In this document: positions 46,208 through 53,044 of the stretch, in pieces | Numbering within the stretch: position 1 is the stretch's first letter | How the letters are laid out: every line of letters begins with the position of its first letter | From: Streptomyces sp. NBC_00154 | GTDB taxonomy: Bacteria; Actinomycetota; Actinomycetes; Streptomycetales; Streptomycetaceae | Assembly (NCBI RefSeq): GCF_026342835.1 | Contig: NZ_JAPEMI010000001.1 | Span: forward strand, 744,001 to 808,000 | DNA length: 64,000 nt | Direction of reading: 5' to 3' | The notes under the pieces: model-generated | Told to the model about the DNA's origin: nothing | Database searches by the model: none | The model's input: only the letters and a program-made list of their open reading frames with translations | Translations under genes and position numbers: made by a program

Positions 46208-47059
46208 ATGACGGACGGCGCGGGTGGCACGGGCGGCACGACGGGTGCGGACGGGGAGCCGGAGCCTTCGGACGGTCTGAAGGCGTTCGGCGAGGTGGTC
46301 AAGGTCTTCCGTAAGCGGGCGCGGCTCACGCAGGAGGAGTTCGCCCCCAGGGTGCGGTACTCGGTGCCGACGGTCGCCTCGATCGAACAGGGGCGCCGGT
46401 TCCCACCGCCCGCGTTCGTGGACCGGGCGGAGGAGGTATTGGATGCGTTCGGCGTGATCAAGGCTGCGGCGAAGCACTTGTCGCGGCAGCGGGGGTTGGC
46501 GAAGTGGTTCCACCACTGGGCGCAGTTGGAGACGGATGCGATCAGTCTCAGCACATACGAATGCCGAGTGGTCCCGGGGCTGTTGCAATCCGATACCTAC
46601 GTCAGGGCGGTCTTCGAAAACCGCGTGCCAGCATTGAGCGATGACCAGATCGAGGTGCAGCTCTTAGCTCGCACTGAGCGCCAGCGGCTCCTGCGGGAGG
46701 GACGTCACACTGAGTACAGCTTCATCATCGAAGAGGCCCTGTTCCTGCGCCGCACAGGCGGCAAGGAGACCACCAAGGACCTCATCGACCACGTACTGCA
46801 GTGTGCAGAACTGCGTAACGTCGAGCTTCAGGTGATGCCTCTACAACGGGAGAACCACGCCGGGCTGGAGGGTCCCATTCAGCTTCTTGAGACGACGGAC
46901 CACAGACTTCTCGCATACTCCGAGGGGCAGCGCACCGGCCACCTGATCTCTGATCCGGATGTAAGTGTGCTGCAGAGGCGGTATGCCAAGATGCGCTCGC
47001 AGGCTCTCACCCATGAGGACACGGTGAGTCTGCTCGAGCGAATGCGAGGAGCGCTATGA
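46208..47059 (+). CDS. XRE-family regulator with DUF5753 (WhiJ-like), TTA-codon containing
   Basis: A 283-residue regulator. After a Gly-rich tail, the helix-turn-helix is FGEVVKVFRKRARLTQEEFAPRVRYSVPTVASIEQGRRFPPPAFVDRAEEVLDAFG. The rest is DUF5753, from LAKWFHHWAQLETDAISLSTYECRVVPGLLQSDTYVRAVF to QLLETTDHRLLAYSEGQRTGHLISDPDVSVLQRRYAKMRSQAL. Leucine codon 153 is TTA (46664-46666), rare in this GC-rich genome and read by the developmentally regulated bldA tRNA. It overlaps the DUF397 gene by four bases (ATGA). The family includes WhiJ and Scr-type regulators of development and antibiotic production; the exact role here is inferred. Confidence 0.92.
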   Translation: MTDGAGGTGGTTGADGEPEPSDGLKAFGEVVKVFRKRARLTQEEFAPRVRYSVPTVASIEQGRRFPPPAFVDRAEEVLDAFGVIKAAAKHLSRQRGLAKWFHHWAQLETDAISLSTYECRVVPGLLQSDTYVRAVFENRVPALSDDQIEVQLLARTERQRLLREGRHTEYSFIIEEALFLRRTGGKETTKDLIDHVLQCAELRNVELQVMPLQRENHAGLEGPIQLLETTDHRLLAYSEGQRTGHLISDPDVSVLQRRYAKMRSQALTHEDTVSLLERMRGAL

Positions 47060-47241: not shown

Positions 47242-47484
47242 GGTTACCTACGGCAGGTACCTCGTCCCGCTGGACCGACCGGCCCGGGACAGTTGCACAG
47301 ATCACGTTTCGGCAGCGTGCCTGCGGCCCCGCCGCACCTTGATAGCGTCGCTCCCGCGATTGCGGACCGTTCCCCGCCGGGGTCGTCGCCGCGCCCGTAC
47401 GGCCGGTCCATGACGGACGGCCGACGAGGGCGGGGCGTGCTGACGCACGGGGACGTACGTGGCAAGGACGAAGAGGGCCGACGC

Positions 47485-49905
47485 ATGAGCCTCGCGCAGT
47501 TGCACTACACCTCTGCCTCCGCGGGGGAAGACGGGGTCGGCGCACGGTTCACGGCGGTCGGTGGCGGCATACCCACGCCGGTGCTGACCGAGGCGGAGCA
47601 GCTGCTCGGTTACGAGCCTCCGGCCGGGGCGCCGTACCGTCCGACCGCCGCTGAACTCCGTTCCTTTCCCGAGACGTTCAGCTTCAGCGCGCTCTCCGAC
47701 GGCAGCCATCTGCTGAGCCGCACCGTGGCACTCGGAGGTTCCGGCGCCGGTCACTTCCACGCGCATGCGGTGCATCTTCCGGCCGGCACGCGCCTGCCGG
47801 GCGACGCGCTCCCCATCACGGCGTGGCGGTCGCCGAGCTGGGCATCGACCACGCCCGACGGCGGTACACCGGACCGCATATCGGCCCTCCCCGCCTCTGC
47901 CGTCTTCGGGCAGGAGGCGCTCAACGACTTCGCGGTCTCCCGCAGCCCCTGGCTCGCGACGGTCTTCGCCGATCTGCGCCGGGTGAGCGAGAAACGGTCG
48001 TCGGCGCAGATCGTCCTCGTGGAACGGCAGAGCGCGGACGTGGCCCGGTGGATCGCGCTGGCCGGAGCCGTACTCCCGCCGGAGGACGCACACCGGCTGA
48101 CGTTCACCACGTACACCCGCCGCCCGGCGCACTCCCCGCACCAGGTGATCGGCGTAATGCCGGACGACGCACACGAGCTGACCGGCCCGGGCTTCCGTGT
48201 GCACGCATGCGCCGGCCGCGCTCCGGAGGGGCCGGCGGACGATGCCTGGGCGGAGACGGTGGCCCGGATCTGGCGCAGCCGCGCACCGGAACTTTTCCGG
48301 GCAGCTGCCGGGCTGCCCGGCGAACCCTTCGCCGCCGGACCGCTCGCCTTCACCGCACTGCACGCGGGCATCGCGCTCGGCCCCAACGGGCGTGCTGCGG
48401 CCGCCGATTGGGCTGCCGAGAGGCCGTACGCGCTGGACGAGCAGCAGGCGCACCGGCTGACCACCGCACTCGCGGCACCGGCCGACGACCGTACCGCCGC
48501 CGAGTCGGCGTCGGTCGCCCGGCTGCTGGCGGCGCTCGAAGGACGTGCCCCTGCCACCGCCACGGCACCGCTCGCCGCACTACTGGTGACGGAGGCGGTG
48601 CGGCGCAGCGACATCGTGCTCGCACTACCGCCCCGCTCGGCGTTCGCCGAACCCGCCGCCGTGAAGCAGCTGGCCTCGGATCTCGGTCCGGCCCTGCTCG
48701 CCGAGCTCACCTCGGAAACGACGGAATCCACGGTCGGGGAGACCATCGGGCGCCAGGTGCAGCTGCTCCGGATCGCCCGGCTGCTCGACATGGATCTGAT
48801 GGACCAACTTCCTTCCGTCGCCCGGCACATGGCTCGGACTCTGCTTGCTGCTCCGGCGCCGGACAGAGGCCACGCACTGCTCGATCTCCTGGACGAACAG
48901 TTCGACGTCCGCACGGCGCTCCTCGGCGAACTCGACCAACTCGCCCTGACCGCCCCCTCCGCCGCCGAAGAACTCCTCACCCGCGTCGCCCTCCCCTTCA
49001 CCGGCGCGCAGGCACTGCCGCATCTGCGGATGTGCGCCGAGGCGCCCCGCGCGAAGGAGCAGGGCTCCGACCGCATCATGGCGCTGCACACGGTGCTGCG
49101 AGCCGCCGGGTTCTCGCCCTTCGCCGAGCCGCTGGTACTGCGTACCGCCGTCGGGCTGATCTGGGGCGATGCCACCCCGACGGCGGGCGAGGCACGGCTC
49201 CTCCTCGGCGAGTCCGGCTCCGACTCCCACCGGACGGCCGGTACGTGGTCACATCTCGTCGCCGCCGCACTCTCCGCGCCTTCCGACGACGCGGAGGCCG
49301 CCGAACTCTCCCACGATCTGCTGCGCTGCTTCCCCCAGGAGATCGACGCACGGGGCCGCGGTGCACTGCAGCTGCTGGAGTTCGCCCGCGACATCAGGTC
49401 CGGCGAGTCGGCGCCCGGCTGGCCCGACCGAGCAAAGGCTCTGCGCGCCCGCGCCGAGCCGGTGGAACTCACTGTGCTGGAGCACGCCTACGGCACCCTT
49501 GCGCACAGCCTGCTTGCGCCGGACCGCCCTGAGGCGGAGCTGTACGCATTCGTGCACAGCGACGACCTGGATCTGATCGCGGCCTACGGCAGGGCCGCCC
49601 GCCACGACACCGTCCTGGCCCGGCTGCGGACCGAACCGGCGTACGTGGCCGACTGTTTCACCGTCTGGACCTCCCACCCGCACGCGGGCCGGGCCTGGAG
49701 CGAAACCCGGGCCGCACTGCTGGAGGAGGTGCTGCGCCCCGTGGTACGCGACCTGTCGGGCAGCGAGATCGCGGCGGTGGAGAAGGCCGCCGAACGCACG
49801 GGCAGCAGCCGCACAGCGGAGGCGTTCCGGGCCTGGCGCCGCCGCCCAGGCACCCTCGGCAGGCGACTGGGAAGCCGGCTGGCGGCACGAGTGCGACGGT
49901 TCTAG
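47485..49905 (+). CDS. GTPase-associated protein 1 (GAP1-like), orphan
   Basis: An 806-residue cytoplasmic protein. The N-terminal ~250 residues match the GAP1 N-terminal module: SLAQLHYTSASAGEDGVGARFTAV, LLGYEPPAGAPYRPTAAELRSFPETFSFSALSDGSHLLSRTVALGGSGAGHFHAHAVHLP, and later VFGQEALNDFAVSR and LTFTTYTRRPAHSPHQVIGVMPDD. The rest is alpha-helical, with no ATP/GTP motif. In actinobacteria this protein normally accompanies a GTPase and a vWA/GAP2-type protein predicted to work in conflict or vesicle-like systems; none is in the window. ATG 47485 is the start of the conserved region; upstream 64 codons are unrelated. Confidence 0.78.
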   Translation: MSLAQLHYTSASAGEDGVGARFTAVGGGIPTPVLTEAEQLLGYEPPAGAPYRPTAAELRSFPETFSFSALSDGSHLLSRTVALGGSGAGHFHAHAVHLPAGTRLPGDALPITAWRSPSWASTTPDGGTPDRISALPASAVFGQEALNDFAVSRSPWLATVFADLRRVSEKRSSAQIVLVERQSADVARWIALAGAVLPPEDAHRLTFTTYTRRPAHSPHQVIGVMPDDAHELTGPGFRVHACAGRAPEGPADDAWAETVARIWRSRAPELFRAAAGLPGEPFAAGPLAFTALHAGIALGPNGRAAAADWAAERPYALDEQQAHRLTTALAAPADDRTAAESASVARLLAALEGRAPATATAPLAALLVTEAVRRSDIVLALPPRSAFAEPAAVKQLASDLGPALLAELTSETTESTVGETIGRQVQLLRIARLLDMDLMDQLPSVARHMARTLLAAPAPDRGHALLDLLDEQFDVRTALLGELDQLALTAPSAAEELLTRVALPFTGAQALPHLRMCAEAPRAKEQGSDRIMALHTVLRAAGFSPFAEPLVLRTAVGLIWGDATPTAGEARLLLGESGSDSHRTAGTWSHLVAAALSAPSDDAEAAELSHDLLRCFPQEIDARGRGALQLLEFARDIRSGESAPGWPDRAKALRARAEPVELTVLEHAYGTLAHSLLAPDRPEAELYAFVHSDDLDLIAAYGRAARHDTVLARLRTEPAYVADCFTVWTSHPHAGRAWSETRAALLEEVLRPVVRDLSGSEIAAVEKAAERTGSSRTAEAFRAWRRRPGTLGRRLGSRLAARVRRF

Positions 49906-49940: not shown

Positions 49941-50465
49941 CTACCCCTCGTCGTCCTCGTCGTCCTCGTCGGAGTCGCCCAGCACGTCGGAGAGGTGCTG
50001 GACGATGGAGTTGCCCAGCTCGTCTTCGGTGGTGAACAGTCCGTGCACGGCGCCCATCGGATAGATGGCCTCCTCCGTGTCCTCTCCGGGCAACCCCACG
50101 CAGGGGTCGTCGATGACCCCTGACGGATCCGCCTCCCCGAACAGGGACGGCAGTTCGGCGCCCTTCACGGCGAACGGCTCGAACTTCCACACCGCTCCCT
50201 GGGTGCGGCAGACCACTTCCCCGATGTACCAGCACGCCCCCTGAAGAAATGCGTCGCGTCGCGCGGTGAGGGTCTCAGCGTCGTTGTCGTACCGGCTGCG
50301 GATGAGATCTTCCAGCGCGTCCAGGGACCGGGGGGAGAAGTCCCATGCCTCGGGGGTGCTGGTGGCCTCGGCCCAGTGCTCGAAGCCCTGGGCGCGTTCG
50401 GTCAGCCACGCCGACAGGTCGGGGTGGGTCTGCGGGTCGATGCTGTGGTCTGCGCGATCAGCCAT
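49941..50465 (-). CDS. Acidic hypothetical protein
   Basis: A 174-residue very acidic protein with no recognised domain. It has a globular part (DLSAWLTERAQGFEHWAEATSTPEAWDFSPRSLDALEDLIRSRY, then GACWYIGEVVCRTQGAVWKFEPFAVKGAELPSLFGE) and a run of Asp/Glu at the C-terminus (DSDEDDEDDEG). The YIGEVV...G..W pattern resembles immunity-like or DUF6278-type Streptomyces proteins, weakly. ATG 50465. It is convergent with the GAP1 gene and divergent from the surface nuclease-like gene by 197 bases. A role as immunity protein to that neighbour is pure speculation. Confidence 0.65.
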   Translation of the reverse strand: MADRADHSIDPQTHPDLSAWLTERAQGFEHWAEATSTPEAWDFSPRSLDALEDLIRSRYDNDAETLTARRDAFLQGACWYIGEVVCRTQGAVWKFEPFAVKGAELPSLFGEADPSGVIDDPCVGLPGEDTEEAIYPMGAVHGLFTTEDELGNSIVQHLSDVLGDSDEDDEDDEG

Positions 50466-50662
50466 GCCGCCCACTGTAGACAGCCACTCGGACAGTGGAA
50501 TGAACTGTCCTTCCTGTCACACCAGTTGACACGCCGAACCTCAACAACCCGTTGTATCAGCCGGCACATGAAGCTCTAGGGTGTGGGGCTGGACGGTGGC
50601 AAGCACGGGGGCCCCACCGTCCAACTCCATGTCCCATGAGCCCCCCACAGGGACAGACACAC

Positions 50663-53044
50663 GTGAGTACCTCCATACGATCACGCTTACGGCTCCGGCT
50701 GGCCGCCTGCTTCGCCACGGCAGCCGCAGCCGGACTCATCGTCACCGGCCTGCCCGCCCTACAGGGCACGGCCGACGCCGCACCGGGCAAGATCCGCTGC
50801 GACGAGAAGTTCCTCGGCCGCAAATACAACATGGACGAGGCCCGCGGCGTCCAGGGCAAGAACACCCCTTACAGCCAGAACCCCGAAGACACCTGGGGCG
50901 ACTACTTCTTCGACAACCCCTCCCACGCCTTCGACGGGATGTCCACGCCGGACCAGGCGAAGCTGGACGCCGCCGGCAAGACCGAAGATGACGTCCAGAA
51001 GTGGAAGAAGAAGTACGGCCAGACCGGTGACCCGCAGTACCGGGCCCTGGAGATCTACGCCCGCTACAACAAGCAGCTGGTCGGCGACGGCCCTCGGAAG
51101 ATGACGGACTTCCGCCTCTGGCTCGACCAGAGGGTCATCGGCAACGAGGCCAACCAGCGCAAGGGCGACGGCTTCGAATCCCGCGTCGTCAAGCAGTTCA
51201 AGCTCGTCGGACCGGACTGGATCTGCCAGAAGGAAGTGCCGGTCTTCGACAAGAACGGCAAGGCGGTCATCAACCCCAGGACCGGCGAGCAGGCGGTCCG
51301 CAAGTACGACGCCTACAACGCCAAGACCAAAGAGTTCGTCGAGTTCAAGTCCAACGGCAAGCACATCGCCGAACAGCTCCGCTGGGACAAGCACATCCTG
51401 CGCAACAAGGAGTACGCCGACCACAAGCTCCGCCTGATCACCGGCGACGAGACCACGGGCAACACCAAGCGCCAGTACGCCTCCCTGAACCGGCAACTCC
51501 AGAGCGAACGCGGCACGAACCTCCCCCAGGCCACCATCCGCGAGCAGCGCGCCAACGGCCATGCCCGCTGGACGCCGAACAGGTACACCCGCTACGACAA
51601 GGTCTTCAACCCCGATCCGCGCCGCATCGGCTCCTACGGCCCGCTGCACGACGACGTGTGGCGCTCGGCGAAGAGCCCTGAGCAGGCACGCAAGCTCCAG
51701 CACCAGTACAACCAGGTCAACACCCGTGGCGGCTTCGGGCGGCCCGGGGGCATCGACTTCTCCACCCTGGAGCTCCAGTACGTCGGCAACCCGACCAAGG
51801 GCAAGGGTCTCGACTACTCCTTCAAGGCCGACATGGTCGAGGACGAGGACAAGAACCCCGGCTGGGGCGGTGAGCAGCGCCTTCAGCTCTCCTCCGATGC
51901 GATGTTCGCCTGGCTGGCGCTGACGCCGGACAAGTTCTGGGTCAACCTCAACCCGGACCAGCCCGACAAGATCATGGACAAGACGTTCGGGAAGACCGAC
52001 GCCGGACGTGTCCTGCTTCAGGCCGACCTGGAGATGAAGCACGACTACGCGCGTGACATGGACCCGCGCAGCGGCATCGGCAAGCAGTACTGGGATGCCA
52101 TGACGGCCGCGAACATCCCCTGCGGGCACCAGATCCGGCTGTGGATCGTACCCAGGACCGCCAAGGTCCGCGCCGACAACAAGGGCCTGTACATCCTGGA
52201 TGCGCCACTGAAGGTCAACGCCGAACCCCAGAAGGTCAACTACCCCAGCCCCAACGGCAAGTGCGACCTGACCGAGGCCCAGATCGACACCTCACAGCGC
52301 CTGGTCGAGCAGTACGTGATCCCCGACGTCGAGAAGAAGGTCAACAGCGGGAGCGCGTACGCCGACCTGCGCCGCGTCTACAACGCCCGCGTCGCGGCCG
52401 AGTACGTCCGCACCCAGGACAAGGACCACGTCACCGACTTCCGGCCCATCATCAACAGCAACGACGTGGCCCGGTGGCCGCTGCGGGGCAAGGCCAGGAC
52501 CTGGACCCCGAAGCAGACGTGGGACGACTACATGAAGTCGTACACGCAGGGCGACTACAGCTACCCCTGCCAGGTCGACGGCCAGAACAAGACCTGCATC
52601 ATGGGCGGCGTCGACTTCTCCAAGGCCCCGAAGCGCAACATCTCCAAGGTGGAGTTCAACCTCCAGCACCCCAGGACGGACACCACCACCAAGACCTCCA
52701 GGACCACCACGGTCACCTACCGCAACAGCAACACCGTCATGTTCGGCGGCTCCAGCTCCGGCCAGGTCGACAACGGCGGCGGGGGCAACACCCCGGGCCC
52801 GAAGCCGACCGACACGGGCAAACCCACCAGCAAGCCGACCCATACGCCCACCACCCCGGCACCGGAACCTTCCGACAGCCACACCCCCGCCCACACCGGC
52901 GCTCCGAAGGACCCGGACGGCGACCTCGCCGACACCGGCTCCGACACCCCCATCGGTCCGATCGCCTCCCTCGCCGCGGCACTCGCCGTCGGCGGAGCGG
53001 GCCTGACCTGGTGGATGCGCCGCCGTAGGGCCGCCGGCAGCTGA
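50663..53044 (+). CDS. Secreted sortase-anchored protein with PD-(D/E)XK-like N-terminal region
   Basis: A 793-residue secreted protein. A Sec signal (RSRLRLRLAACFATAAAAGLIVTG, cleavage near residue 40) starts it. The C-terminus is a Pro/Thr-rich stalk (~700-750), the sortase-E signal LADTG (755-759), a hydrophobic helix and RRRR. Residues ~168-265 contain GFESRVVKQF, then YDAYNAKTKEFVEFKSNGKHIAEQLRWDKHIL, a PD-(D/E)XK-nuclease-like order with candidate residues Glu172, Asp216, Glu227 and Lys229. The remaining ~400 residues contain ILDAPLKVN, YADLRRVYNARVAAEYVR and a late GGVDFS, seen in other actinobacterial secreted proteins of unknown function. GTG 50663 fits the signal peptide. It has its own terminator. 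Nuclease activity is inference. Confidence 0.75.
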   Translation: MSTSIRSRLRLRLAACFATAAAAGLIVTGLPALQGTADAAPGKIRCDEKFLGRKYNMDEARGVQGKNTPYSQNPEDTWGDYFFDNPSHAFDGMSTPDQAKLDAAGKTEDDVQKWKKKYGQTGDPQYRALEIYARYNKQLVGDGPRKMTDFRLWLDQRVIGNEANQRKGDGFESRVVKQFKLVGPDWICQKEVPVFDKNGKAVINPRTGEQAVRKYDAYNAKTKEFVEFKSNGKHIAEQLRWDKHILRNKEYADHKLRLITGDETTGNTKRQYASLNRQLQSERGTNLPQATIREQRANGHARWTPNRYTRYDKVFNPDPRRIGSYGPLHDDVWRSAKSPEQARKLQHQYNQVNTRGGFGRPGGIDFSTLELQYVGNPTKGKGLDYSFKADMVEDEDKNPGWGGEQRLQLSSDAMFAWLALTPDKFWVNLNPDQPDKIMDKTFGKTDAGRVLLQADLEMKHDYARDMDPRSGIGKQYWDAMTAANIPCGHQIRLWIVPRTAKVRADNKGLYILDAPLKVNAEPQKVNYPSPNGKCDLTEAQIDTSQRLVEQYVIPDVEKKVNSGSAYADLRRVYNARVAAEYVRTQDKDHVTDFRPIINSNDVARWPLRGKARTWTPKQTWDDYMKSYTQGDYSYPCQVDGQNKTCIMGGVDFSKAPKRNISKVEFNLQHPRTDTTTKTSRTTTVTYRNSNTVMFGGSSSGQVDNGGGGNTPGPKPTDTGKPTSKPTHTPTTPAPEPSDSHTPAHTGAPKDPDGDLADTGSDTPIGPIASLAAALAVGGAGLTWWMRRRRAAGS

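What the first reader, a model, noticed from the sequence alone, without database searches (positions are those of the whole stretch)
50663..53044. Cell-wall-anchored protein with a PD-(D/E)XK-like signature
Seen: Sec signal, Pro/Thr stalk, LADTG, hydrophobic helix, RRRR tail, and an ordered set GFE...DAY...VEFKS...QLRWDKHIL in residues 168-246. Known: LAxTG is the sorting signal of class E sortases in Streptomyces; PD-(D/E)XK nucleases need an acid, then (D/E)xK. Together these would make a surface nuclease, an unusual location for this fold. The remaining 400 residues are a family of unknown role. Possible uses: extracellular DNA processing, contact-dependent antagonism or phage defence at the wall.
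Basis: partly seen in the sequence, partly recalled or inferred. Interest (0 to 1): 0.75.

Follow-up and report, generated by a model that had tools for sequence, protein, structure and literature searches.

The report
Wall-anchored nuclease toxin with immunity gene
A soil bacterium (Streptomyces) carries a gene for a nuclease-like protein that it probably displays on its cell wall as a weapon against neighbours, with a partner gene beside it that probably protects its own cells; the weapon sits at the opposite end of the protein from where such weapons usually sit.

Summary
In detail: 793 aa, Sec-like leader, Pro/Thr stalk, LADTG, hydrophobic helix, RRRR. The genome has class E sortases (3 of 3 scanned).

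The larger finding is a polymorphic-toxin-like system turned round. The C-terminal module is constant and the N-terminal domain is exchanged: of 87 loci, 67 carry this nuclease domain, 17 a deaminase-like domain and 3 something else. The divergent neighbour 49941-50474(-) is the probable immunity gene: its family or DUF6333 lies upstream in 66 of 67 nuclease loci and in 0 of 20 others, co-diverges with the toxin domain more than with the C-module and occurs in polyimmunity-like fusions. The same toxin domain ends two eCIS_core proteins with the same immunity family just downstream.

Toxicity, anchoring, release and delivery are inferred. New variant of a known kind.

The parts
50663..53044 (+). 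Toxin gene, 793 aa, GTG start
50663..50782 (+). Sec-like signal peptide, residues 1-40
   Evidence: judged by eye from the translation; no predictor run
50786..51571 (+). N-terminal toxin region, residues 42-303; PD-(D/E)XK core about residues 150-303 (51110-51571)
   Evidence: AlphaFold model pLDDT 83.7; fold rows
51308..51310 (+). Codon of D216, predicted metal ligand
   Evidence: invariant in 63 of 63
51341..51349 (+). Codons 227-229, E-x-K motif (E227, K229)
   Evidence: invariant in 63 of 63
51572..51733 (+). Linker between toxin region and C-module, residues 304-357; possible release region (inferred)
   Evidence: model blocks from residue 261 (protein 302) on have mean pLDDT 52-57
51734..52762 (+). 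Constant C-terminal module, residues 358-700, fold unknown
   Evidence: shared by loci with different N-domains; model pLDDT only 56.6
52763..52924 (+). Pro/Thr-rich stalk, residues 701-754
   Evidence: sequence
52925..53041 (+). Sorting signal: LADTG 755-759, hydrophobic helix, RRRR tail
49941..50474 (-). Candidate immunity gene (family c1), 177 aa from this GTG; an ATG three codons in is an alternative start

Best explanation
The locus is a toxin-immunity pair. The protein is exported by Sec (inferred) and fixed to the wall by a class E sortase at LADTG (inferred). Its N-terminal PD-(D/E)XK domain is the toxin, presented outward on the C-module and stalk. By contact or at short range the toxin domain enters a competing cell, probably another actinomycete, and cuts nucleic acid through D216, E227 and K229 (inferred). 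The divergent neighbour encodes a soluble acidic protein that binds and blocks the nuclease in the producer and its kin (inferred). Shown here: invariant catalytic residues, predicted fold order, exchange of the N-domain on a constant C-module, near-obligate linkage and co-divergence of the partner family, polyimmunity-like fusions, and the same toxin-partner pair in eCIS_core proteins. Not shown: toxicity, binding, anchoring, release, entry, target.
For: D216/E227/K229 invariant in 63 of 63. Predicted fold order. N-domain exchange: 67 nuclease, 17 deaminase-like, 3 other of 87 loci. Partner family c1 in 44 and DUF6333 in 22 of 67 nuclease loci, 0 of 20 others; the 67th, L123, has a remote relative in the same divergent place. 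No other family is shared by more than 7 of 63 loci within four genes either side. Toxin-partner partial Mantel 0.66 (40 loci) and 0.78 (22 loci), C-module-partner about 0.20 in both; rank-based 0.51 and 0.72 against 0.28 and 0.08. Two-c1-plus-DUF6333 frame of 858 aa. Toxin domain at the end of two eCIS_core proteins with a c1 gene immediately downstream. LAxTG in 65 of 67; class E sortases in the genome.
Against: No activity is shown. Structural matches are weak by themselves (Foldseek none at E <= 0.001; VIA best Z 7.0). The toxin is at the N-terminus, unlike canonical polymorphic toxins. No releasing protease or entry factor was identified for the nuclease class. The C-module model is poor. 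Toxin domain and partner both evolve faster than the C-module, which can inflate the partial correlations, and a weaker C-module-partner correlation remains (0 and 3 of 2000 permutations). Some c1 and DUF6333 genes lie without such a toxin in the fetched 9-14 kb.
Confidence: 0.8

Rival explanations
1. A surface nuclease that degrades extracellular DNA for nutrition or matrix turnover; the neighbour is regulatory or unrelated.
For: Outside location (inferred) and nuclease-type residues.
Against: Does not explain the exchange for deaminase-like domains on the same module, the near-obligate co-diverging acidic partner, polyimmunity-like fusions or the same domain in eCIS_core proteins.
Confidence: 0.07
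2. The same toxin-immunity pair serves inside the colony (kin discrimination between hyphae, or programmed death in development) and not against other species, or the protein is shed and acts as a diffusible toxin.
For: Toxin and partner diverge even among close relatives; wall proteins of Streptomyces can be tied to development (titles and abstracts in the listing).
Against: Patchy presence, 63 of 295 genomes, and single partner genes without the toxin fit warfare better than development; diffusion cannot be excluded.
Confidence: 0.08
3. A phage-defence device at the wall that attacks incoming DNA.
For: Location outside the membrane (inferred) and nuclease-type residues.
Against: Does not explain the co-diverging partner, the polyimmunity-like fusions or the eCIS_core versions. 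PADLOC was not searched.
Confidence: 0.03

Closest known systems
Polymorphic toxin systems with Tox-REase domains (Zhang et al. 2012, PMC3482391; abstract and passages seen)
   Same: Exchangeable nuclease or deaminase toxin domains on a constant part, a linked immunity gene, polyimmunity proteins; the motif listed there for Tox-REase-7 (GxxxE, IxD, ExK, Q) resembles this one.
   Different: Their toxin domain is C-terminal; here it is N-terminal with the constant part behind it. Sortase is not mentioned in the held text. The partner families c1 and DUF6333 were not recognised in the passages seen.
eCIS (PVC-type) toxins with eCIS_core, PF13699
   Same: Two Streptomyces eCIS_core proteins end in the same nuclease domain with a c1 gene downstream.
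   Different: There the toxin is C-terminal in a protein of over 2000 aa; here it is N-terminal in a wall-type protein without eCIS_core.
Streptomyces umbrella (Umb) toxins (PMC11062931; passages seen)
   Same: Streptomyces polymorphic toxins with immunity genes, active against other Streptomyces.
   Different: Secreted ALF-repeat particles with lectins and C-terminal toxins; no wall anchor.
Streptococcus suis WapA with SrtB (PMC12704120; passages seen)
   Same: Sec-exported, wall-associated polymorphic toxin with a sortase contributing to delivery.
   Different: N-terminal wall-binding (LysM) part, Rhs shell, C-terminal toxin; sortase catalysis on WapA is not established there.
CdiA-CT nuclease toxins 4g6u and 4zqu
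   Same: Among the VIA rows for the N-domain, both Z 5.1.
   Different: Outer-membrane CDI delivery (recalled); low identity (14% and 11%).

Membership tests
PD-(D/E)XK nuclease superfamily | Conserved acidic residue followed by (D/E)xK | tested here: met
   D216, E227, K229 in 63 of 63
PD-(D/E)XK nuclease superfamily | alpha-beta-beta-beta-alpha-beta core | tested here: met
   AlphaFold model, blocks of the core at pLDDT 86-95; solved-structure matches modest
PD-(D/E)XK nuclease superfamily | Metal-dependent nuclease activity | not testable with these tools
   needs an assay
Polymorphic toxin systems (Zhang et al. 2012) | Exchangeable toxin domains on a constant module | tested here: met
Polymorphic toxin systems (Zhang et al. 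2012) | Linked immunity gene of a toxin-specific family | tested here: met
   linkage and co-divergence only; neutralisation not tested
Polymorphic toxin systems (Zhang et al. 2012) | Toxin domain at the C-terminus | tested here: not met
   toxin domain is N-terminal here; C-terminal only in the eCIS_core relatives
Polymorphic toxin systems (Zhang et al. 2012) | A recognised delivery system or releasing peptidase | tested here: inconclusive
   Pfam finds none in the window protein; PrsW only beside 7 of 20 other-type loci
Tox-REase-7 (PF15649) | Pfam score above gathering | tested here: not met
   0 families for the window protein at E <= 10; 2 of 24 members match at best E 0.021
Class E sortase substrates | LAxTG, hydrophobic helix, basic tail | tested here: met
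   NCBIfam models match below cut-off
Class E sortase substrates | Class E sortase in the genome | tested here: met
   3 of 3 scanned above cut-off, of 9 sortase-family matches
Class E sortase substrates | Covalent attachment to the wall | not testable with these tools
   needs wall fractionation of a sortase deletion strain

The most novel reading that the evidence does not exclude
A previously undescribed class of polymorphic toxins in Streptomyces with reversed polarity: exchangeable nuclease or deaminase toxins sit at the N-terminus directly behind a Sec signal, on a shared C-terminal presentation module. It has two display formats, sortase-E wall-anchored nucleases and membrane-anchored deaminases, some of the latter with a linked PrsW protease for release. 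Two new immunity families (c1 and DUF6333) serve the nucleases, and the nuclease-c1 cassette is shared with eCIS_core proteins.
Probability: 0.6. Interest if true: 0.82.

Novelty: new variant of a known kind. Interest (0 to 1): 0.75.

Why it matters
The umbrella-toxin paper states that polymorphic toxin delivery systems had not been identified in Streptomyces before it (passage). This would be a differently built one, whose constant module occurs in 63 of 295 sampled Streptomyces genomes, using the wall itself as the platform. It gives DUF6333 and an unnamed acidic family a testable role as immunity proteins, suggests that toxin polarity can be reversed, and offers a compact pair for studying nuclease-immunity recognition.

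Tried and rejected
C-module structure: the model had pLDDT 56.6; Foldseek gave nothing at E <= 0.001 and VIA no Z above 3.9, so I draw nothing from it. I recalled an FWVNL-type family in other phyla. I made no search outside the phylum by profile; within it the module is in 4 of 396 genomes, three Streptomyces (one the window's own) and one other genus. The recollection is untested.

Pfam (E up to 10) found nothing in the window protein, and PDB by sequence only one match at E 0.074. Weak Pfam hits of single family members: Tox-REase-7 in 2 of 24 (best 0.021), Tox-REase-9 in 1 (0.0011), AHJR-like REase in 1 (0.097), and unrelated ones such as sCache_2 in 2 (0.043). PF15649 was sought in 121 Streptomyces genomes: 0 hits, but no control rang, so absence is not shown. 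c1 against c2 by profile comparison: probability 1.3, so treated as unrelated.

My greedy gene finder missed the partner in 12 of 67 loci; a six-frame profile search recovered 11 and the counts use that search. A search for conserved neighbours of the 20 other-type loci was swamped by antisense frames, so no immunity family is proposed for them; some of those loci are cut by contig ends (for example L091, L099, L100). With default filters my script missed the toxin domain of L189 and L190; with filters off it was found, as the genome search had found it.

Rows dropped: L009 from the nuclease alignments (other N-domain); L048/L191 (N-domain fragment without C-module); L010/G016 pieces (broken copy); four loci met twice (L127, L128, L133, L134) in the 63-locus counts. 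Counts of 67 keep them. The 24-row alignment used only the first two searches; one search uses all 63.

What is not in print rests, in open-licence PMC papers only. PMC13392607 was searched by terms. PMC5148588, PMC10318531, PMC8213781, PMC11297309, PMC13274773 and others were seen in listings only.

Full report
What is there. The frame 50663-53044(+) encodes 793 aa as described. The genome is a Streptomyces by its relatives: the closest of 18 named loci found, 94% identical, is in Streptomyces sp. NBC_01669. It has nine sortase-family matches; the three scanned are class E by NCBIfam. The Sec leader is judged by eye.

The nuclease domain. In an alignment of 63 non-redundant members, the window's own included, G168, D216, N219, E227 and K229 are invariant and E172 is kept in 50. 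An earlier 24-row alignment gave the same three catalytic residues. AlphaFold2 on 18 sequences gives mean pLDDT 83.7, with helix 109-137, strands 145-152, 171-178 and 183-188, helix 195-206 and strand 214-219 in model numbering (add 41), the PD-(D/E)XK order. Foldseek ranks the CRISPR nuclease Can2 first, at E 4e-3, with none at E <= 0.001. VIA gives Z 7.0 (rmsd 3.1, 95 aligned) for the P. abyssi repair endonuclease 2vld and Z 5.1 for two CdiA-CT toxins; that most top rows belong to this superfamily is recalled. Z under 8 alone would not convince; with the invariant D, E and K it does. Distant members read RKPD...YEMKS, LKPD...YELKS and RRPD...VEIKT.

An exchanged domain on a constant module. 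Residues 358-700 are matched in 63 of 295 Streptomyces genomes and, in a phylum-wide sample, in 4 of 396 genomes, one outside the genus. Six plasmid records, all Streptomyces, hold it. Of 87 loci examined, 67 carry the nuclease domain and 20 do not. Seventeen of the 20 share an invariant H, E, R, C, C in an HxE...C...C arrangement, the zinc motif of deaminases (recalled); 7 of the 17 match Pfam XOO_2897-deam at E <= 0.1, best 3e-10. The other three are L104, with a different PD/ExK-like stretch, and L097 and L100, unidentified. LAxTG is present in 65 of 67 nuclease-type proteins and 0 of 20 others, which mostly end in a hydrophobic helix with a basic tail. A PrsW-like gene lies within 7 of the 20 other-type loci (six deaminase-like and L104) and none of the 67; two were confirmed as Pfam PF13367.

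The partner gene. Window gene 49941-50474(-) belongs to a family I call c1; its best Pfam match is DUF6278 at 17.1 bits, below the cut-off of 26.4. c1 occurs in 44 and DUF6333 (PF19859; one member checked, E 5e-92) in 22 of 67 nuclease-type loci, always upstream of the toxin, never both in the fetched stretch, and in 0 of 20 other-type loci. Without repeated loci this is 40 and 22 of 63. The exception, L123, has a divergent 185-aa gene that scores only 7.9 bits with the c1 model but resembles the first domain of a two-c1 protein (E 2.9e-21 against nine sequences). Within four genes either side, no other family is shared by more than 7 of 63 loci, and those lie at scattered positions. The members examined are acidic (median excess of acidic residues 22 for c1, 20 for DUF6333), and 1 of 32 and 0 of 19 exceed a 19-residue hydropathy of 1.6, so they look soluble.

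Co-divergence. Mean identities are 0.35 (toxin domain), 0.56 (C-module) and 0.35 (partner) among 40 c1 loci, and 0.43, 0.62 and 0.40 among 22 DUF6333 loci. Partial Mantel correlations are 0.66 and 0.78 for toxin-partner given C-module (0 of 2000 permutations reach either), against 0.20 and 0.20 for C-module-partner given toxin (0 and 3 of 2000). Rank-based values are 0.51 and 0.72 against 0.28 and 0.08. Both fast regions evolve alike, so this is support and not proof.

Polyimmunity. c1 was found in 57 of 295 genomes at E <= 0.001, short weak matches included, DUF6333 in 31 of 295. One 858-aa frame (L161) holds two c1 stretches and most of a DUF6333 domain, whose last part lies in another frame. 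Nine further loci hold two c1 stretches, eight in a single frame and L168 in two; in several the second stretch is weak (19-40 bits). In the one relative outside the genus, L181, a frame with two c1 stretches lies directly upstream of a nuclease-plus-C-module gene on the same strand. This resembles what Zhang et al. call polyimmunity proteins (PMC3482391, passages). Single c1 or DUF6333 genes without such a toxin in the fetched 9-14 kb also occur (L170, L171, L173-L178, L180): expected of orphan immunity genes, but compatible with other roles.

The same pair elsewhere. The nuclease domain ends two giant frames, 2657 aa (L189) and 2254 aa (L190), whose N-terminal parts match eCIS_core PF13699 at 4e-25 and 2e-27. 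A c1 gene follows at once on the same strand, overlapping by about 23 bases in L189 and after about 45 bases in L190 if the first Met is the start.

Mechanism. I infer Sec export, sortase-E anchoring, outward display of the N-terminal nuclease, delivery by an unknown route into nearby competitors, nucleic-acid cleavage, and neutralisation by the soluble partner. Release and entry are the least certain steps.

Against what is known. It works like a polymorphic toxin but with the opposite polarity, so I file it as a new variant and not as a canonical member. Zhang et al. list at least eight delivery systems, with PrsW fused to toxins; sortase is not mentioned in the held text. S. suis WapA is the nearest wall-associated precedent seen (passages). 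Searches for an N-terminal toxin domain with polymorphic toxin and for DUF6333 returned no paper.

Noticed in passing
window 47293-49905(+): Next gene upstream of the partner is a GTPase-associated protein 1 homologue (GAP1-N2, GAP1-M, GAP1-C), after a regulator-like gene at 46208-47059; the neighbours beyond the partner are not conserved with the toxin.
   Followed up: no
L087, L089, L098, L101, L103, L104, L106: PrsW-family genes lie beside 7 of 20 other-type loci and none of 67 nuclease loci: a possible releasing protease for the membrane-anchored class.
   Followed up: partly
L104:3780-5000; L097 and L100 N-terminal regions: N-domains on the same C-module that are neither this nuclease nor the deaminase-like type: L104 has another PD/ExK-like stretch, L097 and L100 are unidentified.
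   Followed up: partly
G278:C1:52492-53508(-) and 11487326-11488342(+): Two equally scoring C-module copies of one genome lie equally far from the two ends of an 11.54-Mb contig, as if in terminal inverted repeats.
   Followed up: no
six Streptomyces plasmid records: The C-module occurs on large plasmids, two of them typed as mobilizable, so the system may move.
   Followed up: no
L005, L010, L048/L191: Interrupted or truncated copies: L005 has an internal TGA, L010 is in pieces, L048/L191 keep only the N-domain.
   Followed up: no
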